From positions 827,501-891,500 of the forward strand of contig NZ_CP029797.1 in NCBI RefSeq assembly GCF_003268595.1: 64,000 nt of DNA, written 5' to 3'. Shown here in pieces: positions 21,439 through 23,051 of the stretch. The position numbers and the translations under genes were made by a program. This DNA is from Paraliobacillus zengyii (lineage in GTDB: Bacteria; Bacillota; Bacilli; Bacillales; Amphibacillaceae). The notes under the pieces are model-generated. The model saw nothing but the letters and a program-made list of their open reading frames with translations, searched no databases and was not told the DNA's origin. Position 1 is the first letter of the stretch. Every line of letters starts with the position of its first letter.

Positions 21439-21516
21439 AAAGTTAATTTATTTAAATTAGAACTACTAATTTAGAACATATTATGATATTATATTTAAGC
21501 AATTATAACTATATAC

Positions 21517-21592
21517 TTTGGCAAACTTATTGAAAAATGAGGACGCAAAGCCACGAATCTAAAGCTTTAGAGCAAAGATAGTCGAGCTGCAT
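21517..21592 (+). ncRNA. Cyclic-di-GMP-I riboswitch (GEMM-I)
   Basis: The leader contains the GEMM-I core: GGCAAAC, then a short helix CTTATT/AATGAG capped by a GAAA tetraloop, then GGACGCAAAGCC. A second arm follows with the tetraloop-receptor sequence TCTAAAGC...AAAGATAG, and then TCGAGCTGC. These strings are the most conserved positions of the Vc2-type aptamer. An intrinsic terminator lies about 30 bases downstream, so the switch probably acts at transcription. It precedes the small unknown gene at 21687 and the KAS III-like gene at 22071. Confidence 0.92.
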
Positions 21593-21624
21593 TTAGTCAT
21601 TTAGCACGTATTAAAATGATTGTG

Positions 21625-21654
21625 AGCCTACAAATGTTTTTGTAGGCTTTTTTG
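21625..21654 (+). terminator. Expression-platform terminator of the c-di-GMP riboswitch
   Basis: AGCCTACAAA and TTTGTAGGCT pair around a TGTT loop, followed by six T. Between aptamer and terminator, AGTCATTT can pair with AAATGATT, a candidate alternative structure. Whether c-di-GMP turns the switch on or off cannot be decided from sequence alone. Confidence 0.85.
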
Positions 21655-21686
21655 CGTACATGGTATAAAAACAGGGGGAAAGTGTA

Positions 21687-22031
21687 ATGGAAAAGTATAG
21701 TATTAAGGTTGATGAAACAAATAAGAAAGTAGACATGATTGTAAGTGGTTCATTTGAGCCTGCAGATGTGGAGCAGTTCGTGAAAGATTATCAAACAAAA
21801 ATAGGTGCTATTACAACTAATCAATATACATTAGATGTTGATTGTACCACTATGAATATACTGACAAAAGATATGGTGCCGAGTTTAGAAAATTCATTTA
21901 AAATGTACAATCAATCAGGATTCGAAAAGATTCTTTTCACAATCAAGAAAAATCCTGTAATAAAAATGCAGTTGAAACGAATTGCTAAAAATTCAGGTTT
22001 AACAAATTCTGAAGTAGTCGAGATTGCATAA
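21687..22031 (+). CDS. Unknown small protein under c-di-GMP riboswitch
   Basis: This is a 114-residue cytoplasmic protein that I do not recognise at family level. It begins MEKYSIKVDETNKKVDMIVSG, which looks like beta strands, followed by alternating helices and strands (EPADVEQFVKDYQ, YTLDVDCTTMNILTKD, EKILFTIKKNP) and a basic C-terminal helix. The size and beta-alpha rhythm resemble STAS-like folds, but no diagnostic motif is visible. There is one cysteine in the middle. Its Shine-Dalgarno is AGGGGGAAAG. The KAS III-like gene follows after 39 bases, so the two are co-expressed under the riboswitch. Confidence 0.8.
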   Translation: MEKYSIKVDETNKKVDMIVSGSFEPADVEQFVKDYQTKIGAITTNQYTLDVDCTTMNILTKDMVPSLENSFKMYNQSGFEKILFTIKKNPVIKMQLKRIAKNSGLTNSEVVEIA

Positions 22032-22070
22032 AACTAATTTAATGATATTGGTTTAAGGTGGGTATTGTTC

Positions 22071-23051
22071 GTGGAAAACATTAGAATTAAAGGGATAGAT
22101 ATTTATCATCCGGGTAAAATTCTGGATAATGCATATTTCATTAATCATTTTGCTGAGAGAGATAAAGATATAGAGAGATTTTTAACACATATGGGTAGAG
22201 ATAAGAGATATGTGATTGATAATTCAGAAGAAAATGGATTGACAATGGGAGTCGCTGTTGCACGAAAATTATTAAAAAAACTAAATCTCACTGGTAAGGA
22301 TATCGATATGATTGTATTTTCAACGCAAGTACCAGAGACTACTTTTCCTACTAATACGATGTTTTTACATGCTGCAATTGAGGCAAATAGTGAGACGATA
22401 ATATTTGACTCTAATGCTAATTGTGCTGGCATGACAGTTGCTGTAGAACAAGCGTCTTATTATATGAAAGCAAATGCTCGAATAAATAAAACACTTGTTG
22501 TAGGCTCTGACTATAATTCGCTTATTAGCAATCCAGAAGATGAGATTACATATGCTAATTATGGTGACGCTGCTGCGGCTGTAGTGTTGGAGAAAACAAA
22601 AGAAGATTCTGGTTTCATTGATGCTATCTACCATACTGATTCAGTTAATCGTGATAAAATTATGTATCCTGGAAATGGCTTATCGAATATAAACAGTGAA
22701 GAAGATAAATATATTAAATGGCTTCCTTTTAATGCCGATTTGGCAATGCCACCGACTTATAGAATGTTAGAAAGACTATTAGAAAGAAATAATCTAACAA
22801 CAAATGACATAAAAGCCTATTGCTTATCCCAATTCTCTTTAGCTAATATCTTGAAAATTCAAAATAAATTTGCTTTAGATCAGAAACAATTGATTTATGT
22901 TGGAGATCGCTTTGGTTATACAGGTACCAGTAGTCCATTTATTGCTTTACATGAAGCAGTAGAAACTGGCGTTGTAACACGCGGAGATTATGTTGTTTTT
23001 TGGACGATAGGTGCAGGTTTTCAACTTGTCGCAATGTTGTTTAAATATTAG
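22071..23051 (+). CDS. Atypical 3-oxoacyl-ACP synthase III-like protein
   Basis: This is a thiolase-fold protein of 326 residues, similar in length to FabH. The nucleophile region FDSNANCAGM keeps the Cys (C118). The other two catalytic positions are changed. The usual PHQAN helix reads LSQFS (His to Ser at about 253), and the usual GNTSAAS loop reads GYTGTSS (Asn to Tyr at about 283). A decarboxylating Claisen condensation is therefore unlikely; acyl transfer or hydrolysis, as in divergent KAS III-like enzymes, is more plausible. GTG at 22071 is chosen because AAGGTGGG lies 8 bases upstream. It is controlled by the c-di-GMP riboswitch at 21517. Confidence 0.85.
   Translation: MENIRIKGIDIYHPGKILDNAYFINHFAERDKDIERFLTHMGRDKRYVIDNSEENGLTMGVAVARKLLKKLNLTGKDIDMIVFSTQVPETTFPTNTMFLHAAIEANSETIIFDSNANCAGMTVAVEQASYYMKANARINKTLVVGSDYNSLISNPEDEITYANYGDAAAAVVLEKTKEDSGFIDAIYHTDSVNRDKIMYPGNGLSNINSEEDKYIKWLPFNADLAMPPTYRMLERLLERNNLTTNDIKAYCLSQFSLANILKIQNKFALDQKQLIYVGDRFGYTGTSSPFIALHEAVETGVVTRGDYVVFWTIGAGFQLVAMLFKY

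What the first reader, a model, noticed from the sequence alone, without database searches (positions are those of the whole stretch)
21517..23051. c-di-GMP riboswitch driving an unknown protein and a KAS III-like protein lacking two catalytic residues
Seen: a full GEMM-I aptamer core, a terminator platform, an unrecognised 114-residue protein and a FabH-like protein that keeps its Cys (C118) but has Ser for the catalytic His (about 253) and Tyr for the Asn (about 283). Known: KAS III needs His and Asn for decarboxylating condensation, and GEMM-I switches usually control motility, adhesion or matrix genes. Inference: c-di-GMP controls production of a modified acyl product (acyl transfer or hydrolysis, with the small protein as partner), perhaps for an envelope or matrix lipid. 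This pairing is the best candidate for an undescribed system here.
Basis: partly seen in the sequence, partly recalled or inferred. Interest (0 to 1): 0.72.

Follow-up and report, generated by a model that had tools for sequence, protein, structure and literature searches.

The report
Ketosynthase-like protein linked to chemotaxis genes
A c-di-GMP-sensing RNA switch sits before a small signalling-type protein and an altered fatty-acid-synthase-like protein that has swapped two of its three catalytic residues; relatives in swimming Clostridia and Bacilli pair that protein with either the same small protein or a chemotaxis receptor, which suggests an undescribed link between acyl chemistry and bacterial swimming.

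Summary
A GEMM-I aptamer (21510-21594, 71.5 bits) and a terminator precede a 114-aa STAS-fold protein and a KAS III-like protein (here KAS'). KAS' keeps Cys118 but has Ser253 for His and Tyr283 for Asn. This is a subfamily trait: of 158 scored rows (some duplicates), Cys 158, Tyr 158, Ser/Thr 155, no His or Asn at those sites; ordinary clostridial FabH 30/30 Cys-His-Asn. The genomic context is new: of 105 intact clostridial copies, 33 have the STAS gene and 66 a chemoreceptor (MCP) beside KAS', none both, 6 neither; partners change at least 8 times on an approximate tree. GEMM-I lies upstream in 32 of 105. FabH loci show no MCP, STAS or GEMM-I (0/30). Clostridial carriers have flagellin (88/89 against 87/117). 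Best reading: a c-di-GMP-controlled, motility-linked module in which KAS' forms an acyl-cysteine and passes the acyl group to a non-malonyl acceptor, read out by a STAS or MCP partner. The association is solid; chemistry and direction of signalling are inferred.

The parts
21510..21594 (+). GEMM-I (c-di-GMP-I) riboswitch aptamer
   Evidence: Rfam RF01051, 71.5 bits, E 4.8e-12, full model 1-87; also found by the genome search as one of 7 in this genome
21584..21628 (+). predicted antiterminator: the 3' strand of the aptamer's P3 base (about 21584-21592) can pair with the start of the terminator's 5' arm (about 21622-21628)
   Evidence: partition function of 21500-21640: pairs 21586-21588 with 21625-21627 at 0.69-0.71; prediction only
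21624..21653 (+). intrinsic terminator hairpin and U tract
   Evidence: -15.2 kcal/mol hairpin 21624-21649; 32 of 38 tested GEMM-I/KAS' leaders, this one included, have such a hairpin within about 230 nt
21687..22031 (+). 114-aa STAS-fold protein, partner of KAS'
   Evidence: ORF; AlphaFold pLDDT 92, pTM 0.85; best fold matches RsbS, SpoIIAA, SiaC, DUF3478; conserved beside KAS'
22071..23051 (+). KAS' : KAS III-like protein with Cys118, Ser253 (His site), Tyr283 (Asn site); GTG start at 22071 judged more likely than TTG at 22065 from the spacing to AAGGTGGG
   Evidence: Pfam PF08545/PF08541, below the cut-off of every NCBIfam model listed; AlphaFold pLDDT 93.3, KAS III fold; signature
22422..22424 (+). 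codon of Cys118, the retained nucleophile
   Evidence: Cys in 158 of 158 rows
22827..22829 (+). codon of Ser253 at the catalytic His site
   Evidence: Ser/Thr in 155 of 158 rows; His in 30 of 30 FabH
22917..22919 (+). codon of Tyr283 at the catalytic Asn site
   Evidence: Tyr in 158 of 158 rows; Asn in 30 of 30 FabH

Best explanation
This is a c-di-GMP-gated, motility-linked module built on a subfamily of KAS III-like proteins that probably cannot do the normal decarboxylating condensation. Shown: the riboswitch, the terminator, the residue signature, the STAS fold of the small protein (by prediction), and the either/or pairing of KAS' with a STAS protein or an MCP in Clostridia. Inferred: (1) c-di-GMP favours termination, so the module is made mainly when c-di-GMP is low and cells swim; (2) KAS' takes an acyl group from acyl-CoA or acyl-ACP onto Cys118, which need not depend on the His; (3) without His and Asn it passes the acyl group to a non-malonyl acceptor, so it is an acyltransferase or signal synthase and not an elongating synthase; (4) the partner reads the outcome: a membrane-embedded chemoreceptor in many Clostridia, a soluble STAS protein in Bacilli and some Clostridia. 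In the window the STAS protein would be the receiver. The same genome has an MCP behind another GEMM-I switch.
For: GEMM-I and terminator. Signature in 155 of 158 rows, Cys and Tyr invariant. STAS 33, MCP 66, both 0, neither 6 of 105 clostridial copies. 58 of 72 adjacent MCPs have 4-6 predicted N-terminal membrane spans against 3 of 25 other MCPs in the same regions, some of which are cut off at region ends; the long ones fall into N-terminal groups of 44, 11, 4 and 3 that BLAST does not link at 1e-3. At least 8 partner changes on a FastTree tree. GEMM-I upstream in 32 of 105, before both STAS-KAS' (8) and KAS'-MCP (24) loci; in 13 clostridial genomes chosen for carrying KAS', 9 of 22 GEMM-I lie in KAS' loci. 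Control: 0 of 30 FabH loci have MCP, STAS or GEMM-I. Flagellin in 88 of 89 carriers against 87 of 117 non-carriers (Fisher p 1.7e-7, relatedness not corrected). AMP-ligase neighbours and one AMP-ligase-ACP-KAS' fusion point to acyl chemistry. In PqsC, acylation of Cys is reported to be independent of the His (PMC4807248, passages read). An MCP gene follows another GEMM-I in the window's genome (L042).
Against: No substrate, product or partner contact is shown. Most Bacilli pairs have no GEMM-I (1 of 14; 3 of 20 in the window's family), so c-di-GMP control is common but not general. Some GEMM-I in the fetched regions lie elsewhere and not upstream of KAS' (for example L229, L257, L279). No MCP gene is among the ORFs I read around the window's KAS' (14-32 kb; by eye). 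The OFF direction rests on folding alone, and class I switches of both signs are known (PMC6366702, passages read). Six clostridial copies have neither partner within 600 bp. Three rows lack Ser/Thr at the His site. The flagellin contrast in the window's own family is weak (20/20 against 129/139).
Confidence: 0.4

Rival explanations
1. KAS' is no synthase but an acyl-thioester sensor: reversible acylation of Cys118 reports acyl-CoA/ACP status by direct docking to the MCP or the STAS protein, feeding metabolic state into chemotaxis.
For: Partner exchange between two kinds of signalling protein; loss of both condensation residues with Cys kept in 158 of 158 rows; 97 of 105 clostridial copies have no AMP-ligase directly downstream.
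Against: AMP-ligase neighbours and the AMP-ligase-ACP-KAS' fusion look biosynthetic. Tyr283 and Asn115 are strictly conserved too, which suggests a kept reaction. No complex was modelled.
Confidence: 0.3
2. KAS' is an acyltransferase of ordinary lipid or secondary metabolism and the MCP merely senses the substrate or product nutritionally.
For: KAS III fold; AMP-ligases like fatty-acid-CoA ligases (none over a curated cut-off in the rows shown); a FabF, an AMP-ligase and a 199-aa ORF upstream in Salinibacillus kushneri L002.
Against: In 58 clustered neighbourhoods no envelope or matrix cluster was seen to recur (most clusters not annotated, ABC-ATPase-like proteins do occur in 19 loci). It does not explain the STAS/MCP either-or pattern.
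Confidence: 0.2
3. KAS' retains a condensing activity with a different residue set (Ser/Thr253, Tyr283 and Asn115 replacing His and Asn).
For: Strict conservation of Tyr283 and Asn115 (158 of 158). PMC4807248 notes that replacing the His of FabH lowered its activity only about 10-fold (passage read).
Against: The same paper states that in E. coli FabH both His and Asn are required for decarboxylation. No curated KAS III model reaches its cut-off.
Confidence: 0.07
4. The gene neighbourhood is coincidence or shared ancestry only.
For: Genomes within a family are related and the survey is not phylogenetically corrected; deep forks of the tree are weakly supported.
Against: At least 8 partner changes, several MCP N-terminal groups, and 0 of 30 FabH controls.
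Confidence: 0.03

Closest known systems
FabH (beta-ketoacyl-ACP synthase III)
   Different: Ser/Thr for His and Tyr for Asn; below the NCBIfam cut-offs (146 of 249 and 140 of 292 bits); partner genes not seen at 30 clostridial FabH loci.
PqsBC of Pseudomonas aeruginosa (FabH-like, makes HHQ)
   Same: A FabH-like enzyme that lacks the Asn, is acylated at Cys without help of the His, and makes a signal molecule (PMC4807248, abstract start and passages read).
   Different: PqsC keeps its His; PqsBC is a heterodimer of two FabH-like proteins; no STAS or MCP partner is mentioned in the passages read.
CerJ / ChlB3 KAS III-like acyltransferases
   Same: KAS III fold used for acyl transfer, with Cys as nucleophile (PMC9573744, passages read).
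   Different: They use Cys-His-Asp; KAS' has no His or Asp in 281-290 of the window protein. No direct alignment to them was made.
PpyS (photopyrone synthase)
   Same: A ketosynthase thought to have evolved from FabH-type enzymes that makes a cell-cell signal (PMC4578411, passages read).
   Different: It is proposed to use a Glu from the neighbouring subunit; the nearest KAS' position by my hand alignment is variable.
STAS / SpoIIAA-like proteins (RsbS, SpoIIAA, SiaC, DUF3478)
   Different: No Pfam STAS match; found next to KAS' and not next to an anti-sigma factor or a diguanylate cyclase in the window.
GEMM-I switches of motility genes (C. difficile flgB operon)
   Same: Class I aptamer with terminator before a motility-linked operon; flgB is switched off by c-di-GMP (PMC6366702, passages read).
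   Different: The controlled operon here encodes KAS' and a STAS or MCP partner; sign of control untested.

Membership tests
GEMM-I (RF01051) riboswitch | covariance score above the curated threshold over the whole aptamer | tested here: met
   71.5 bits against 35, model 1-87
GEMM-I (RF01051) riboswitch | binds c-di-GMP and changes expression | not testable with these tools
   needs in-line probing and in vitro transcription
FabH / KAS III | thiolase-type KAS III fold | tested here: met
FabH / KAS III | catalytic Cys | tested here: met
   158 of 158 rows
FabH / KAS III | catalytic His | tested here: not met
   0 of 158; Ser 150, Thr 5, other 3
FabH / KAS III | catalytic Asn | tested here: not met
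   0 of 158; Tyr 158
FabH / KAS III | curated NCBIfam cut-off (TIGR00747, NF006829) | tested here: not met
   140.4 of 292.1 and 146.1 of 249 bits for the window protein
PqsC-type Cys-His dyad | His kept | tested here: not met
   the definition comes from PMC4807248
CerJ/ChlB3 acyltransferases | Cys-His-Asp set with the His and Asp five residues apart | tested here: inconclusive
   loop FGYTGTSSPF of KAS' has no His or Asp; definition from PMC9573744; that this loop is the equivalent one is my inference, no direct alignment to ChlB3 was made
OleA/PpyS | Glu base from the neighbouring subunit | tested here: inconclusive
   position 92 is variable (Ser 47, Phe 33, Thr 21 of 158), but its equivalence to the Glu site rests on my own recalled alignment
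STAS domain proteins | SpoIIAA-like fold | tested here: met
STAS domain proteins | sequence match to a STAS Pfam model | tested here: not met
   only a sub-threshold CdiI hit, E 0.025
STAS domain proteins | phosphorylatable Ser/Thr of SpoIIAA/RsbS | tested here: inconclusive
   by eye the stretch around residues 60-62 shows no conserved Ser; placing it against SpoIIAA is recalled, no residue-level superposition was available

The most novel reading that the evidence does not exclude
KAS' makes an acyl-derived, membrane-permeable self-signal from acyl-CoA/ACP, and the adjacent multi-span MCP (or, elsewhere, the STAS protein) is its dedicated receptor, so that cells steer by a compound they make themselves only while c-di-GMP is low: a ketosynthase-based chemotactic communication system in Firmicutes.
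Probability: 0.2. Interest if true: 0.92.

Novelty: new variant of a known kind. Interest (0 to 1): 0.73.

Why it matters
It defines a widespread but unnamed KAS III subfamily with its own residue signature: matches at the search thresholds in 89 of 206 genomes of a clostridial family, 90 of 245 of a Paenibacillaceae-like family and 20 of 159 of the window's family. Where one search shows a name, its members are called ordinary ketoacyl-ACP (3-oxoacyl-ACP) synthases. The finding ties that subfamily to c-di-GMP, to chemoreceptors whose N-termini have no Pfam name (4 of 4 multi-span representatives scanned), and to a STAS protein. If the link is functional, it gives orphan multi-span MCPs a testable ligand source and shows a fatty-acid enzyme fold recruited into motility signalling.

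Tried and rejected
Envelope/matrix lipid role: clustered the ORFs of 58 neighbourhoods; besides KAS', STAS and MCP the clusters in most loci were ABC-ATPase-like (19 loci) and one in 10 loci; most clusters were not annotated, so this is an impression and not a gene-by-gene test. Shifted His/Asn: rejected by alignment. Known small-protein family: nothing over threshold in Pfam or NCBIfam, weak PDB sequence hit E 0.21; the fold gave STAS. Single-sequence search for the small protein found only 6 relatives; profile searches found far more. FabH as the source of the association: 0 of 30 controls. The distant cousins L180/L181 (Cys-Thr-Tyr) lie beside a FabH-like gene and, in L180, a butyryl-CoA:acetate CoA-transferase-like gene below its curated cut-off; they were kept in the signature and the tree but are not in the clostridial counts. 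Literature: searches (open-access library only); no listed title or abstract start was about this pairing. Papers: passages of four (PMC4807248, PMC9573744, PMC4578411, PMC6366702), none read whole. Fold-search absences are not used as evidence.

Counting notes: the 105 clostridial copies are intact rows fetched with wide flanks (distance limit 600 bp, or an MCP behind an adjacent AMP-ligase); 3 fragments were dropped. L017, L018 and one fragment of G614 that one search also lists were not in that count. L015 and L142, and L016 and L144, are the same loci seen twice, so the 158 rows contain duplicates; the de-duplicated count of an earlier set is 114 of 114 (107 Cys-Ser-Tyr, 7 Cys-Thr-Tyr). 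The counting HMM at 1e-40 also hits 20 of 30 FabH, but all 158 rows counted lack the FabH residues. The 29 Paenibacillaceae-like regions fetched wide were picked by hand from roughly 100 places: STAS 25, MCP 0, neither 4, GEMM-I 5. One search's 11 of 398 genomes include the window's own and 4 with only distant cousins. The survey model R1 was built from 11 GEMM-I sequences of which 5 come from KAS' loci; in the 13 clostridial genomes Rfam's own model gave the 9 sites. The 38 leaders are the window's and 37 of the 50 GEMM-I hits. In one search, 11 genomes without flagellin are not listed; I took them by elimination.

Full report
Observation. The window holds a GEMM-I aptamer at 21510-21594, 71.5 bits against a gathering score of 35, a terminator hairpin at 21624-21649 with a U tract, a 114-aa ORF at 21687-22031 and a KAS III-like ORF ending at 23051. 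The genome shows only one other match to the KAS III C-terminal domain, a FabH with the normal Cys-His-Asn set (L049), and seven GEMM-I switches.

Distribution. At the thresholds used KAS' is in 20 of 159 genomes of the window's family, 89 of 206 of a clostridial family and 90 of 245 of a Paenibacillaceae-like family; in a spread sample of the phylum 11 of 398 match, of which 4 hold only distant cousins. The family labels are inferred from contigs shared with named records.

Partners. In the 14 Bacilli loci the STAS gene stands upstream in 14; three of them also have an MCP converging from the other side. In 105 intact clostridial copies fetched with wide flanks, 33 have the STAS gene within 600 bp (upstream, downstream or convergent), 66 an MCP (within 600 bp, or behind an adjacent AMP-ligase), 0 both and 6 neither. 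FabH loci from the same family, with 1.5 kb flanks, have neither (0 of 30); the 30 KAS' loci with the same flank size have the STAS gene in 18 and an MCP in 8. On a FastTree tree of 156 rows the partner changes at least 8 times and the presence of GEMM-I at least 11 times (many deep forks are weakly supported). The adjacent MCPs are unusual: 58 of 72 have 4-6 predicted spans in the first 250 residues, against 3 of 25 other MCPs in the same regions, some of those cut off at region ends (simple hydropathy). Four representatives of this kind (L153, L154, L155, L177) have no Pfam match in the N-terminal half. The N-termini of the long ones fall into BLAST groups of 44, 11, 4 and 3 with one left over, and the short soluble ones into a group of 8 with one left over, so chemoreceptors were probably recruited more than once.

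Riboswitch. GEMM-I stands upstream on the same strand in 32 of 105 clostridial copies (24 with MCP, 8 with STAS) and in 5 of 29 hand-picked Paenibacillaceae-like regions, and in 3 of the 20 carriers of the window's family (the window and two others). In 13 clostridial genomes chosen for carrying KAS', Rfam finds 22 GEMM-I; 9 of them lie in KAS' loci, 8 before KAS' or its fragments and 1 before the MCP of the locus (one search read). FabH loci: 0 of 30. Of 38 GEMM-I/KAS' leaders tested, 32 have a terminator-like hairpin. In the window the predicted antiterminator uses the 3' side of the aptamer, which ligand binding should lock; this predicts an OFF switch (inference). The functional class I switches of C. 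difficile are OFF switches while one in B. thuringiensis is ON (PMC6366702, passages read), so the sign needs an experiment.

Motility link. Flagellin genes occur in 88 of 89 clostridial carriers and 87 of 117 non-carriers (Fisher p 1.7e-7, relatedness not corrected), and in 20 of 20 carriers and 129 of 139 non-carriers of the window's family (weak). In the window's genome five of the other six GEMM-I switches precede an MCP, a pectate lyase, a GGDEF protein, an HD-domain protein and a DUF5667 protein; the gene after the sixth (L048) was not scanned.

Chemistry. AMP-ligases related to fatty-acid-CoA ligases directly follow KAS' in 8 of 105 clostridial copies (two clostridial ones scanned), and one Clostridium protein is an AMP-ligase-ACP-KAS' fusion of 999 residues (L018). 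These point to acyl thioesters as substrates. For PqsC the acylation of Cys is reported to be independent of its His. The same paper states that both His and Asn are required for decarboxylation in FabH, and also that replacing the FabH His cost only about 10-fold in activity (PMC4807248, passages read). KAS III-like acyltransferases are known, but with a Cys-His-Asp set (PMC9573744, passages read).

Interpretation. The best-supported account is a c-di-GMP-gated module of the swimming state: KAS' makes an acyl-cysteine and hands the acyl group to a non-malonyl acceptor, and a STAS or MCP partner reads the result. Whether the partner reads a released product (signal synthase and receptor) or docks on KAS' itself (acyl-status sensor) cannot be told from sequence; I give the account as a whole 0.4, the docking sensor 0.3, and ordinary lipid metabolism 0.2. 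The association itself is well supported.

Limits. Genomes are related, the tree is approximate, hydropathy is a crude count of membrane spans, most neighbour genes were not annotated, and no complex was modelled. The literature searches cover open-access papers only.

Noticed in passing
L018:472-3471: A 999-aa Clostridium protein fuses an AMP-ligase, a phosphopantetheine carrier domain and KAS'.
   Followed up: partly
L180:7034-8020 and L181:7094-8077: Distant cousins with Cys-Thr-Tyr stand beside a FabH-like gene (NF005308 in L180) and, in L180, a butyryl-CoA:acetate CoA-transferase-like gene; a related gene of the same cluster is next to the cousin in L181. A possible catabolic relative of KAS'.
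   Followed up: partly
L143:9882-9969: In this locus the GEMM-I lies between the AMP-ligase gene and the MCP gene and not before KAS'.
   Followed up: no
L260:5010-5995 and L261:5014-5697: Two copies of KAS' behind a GEMM-I look broken (fragments); the same genomes hold another, full-length copy.
   Followed up: no
L017:183-1025, L147:8453-9319, L148:8399-9241: Short MCP-like proteins (280-288 aa; no predicted membrane span in L147) are divergent to KAS'-AMP-ligase operons.
   Followed up: partly
L042:1-1488: Another GEMM-I of the window's genome precedes a HAMP-containing MCP gene.
   Followed up: no
L163:4177-6448: A GEMM-I lies at the start of a TPP-enzyme ORF and a 122-aa ORF directly upstream of a STAS-KAS' pair in a Paenibacillaceae-like genome.
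   Followed up: no
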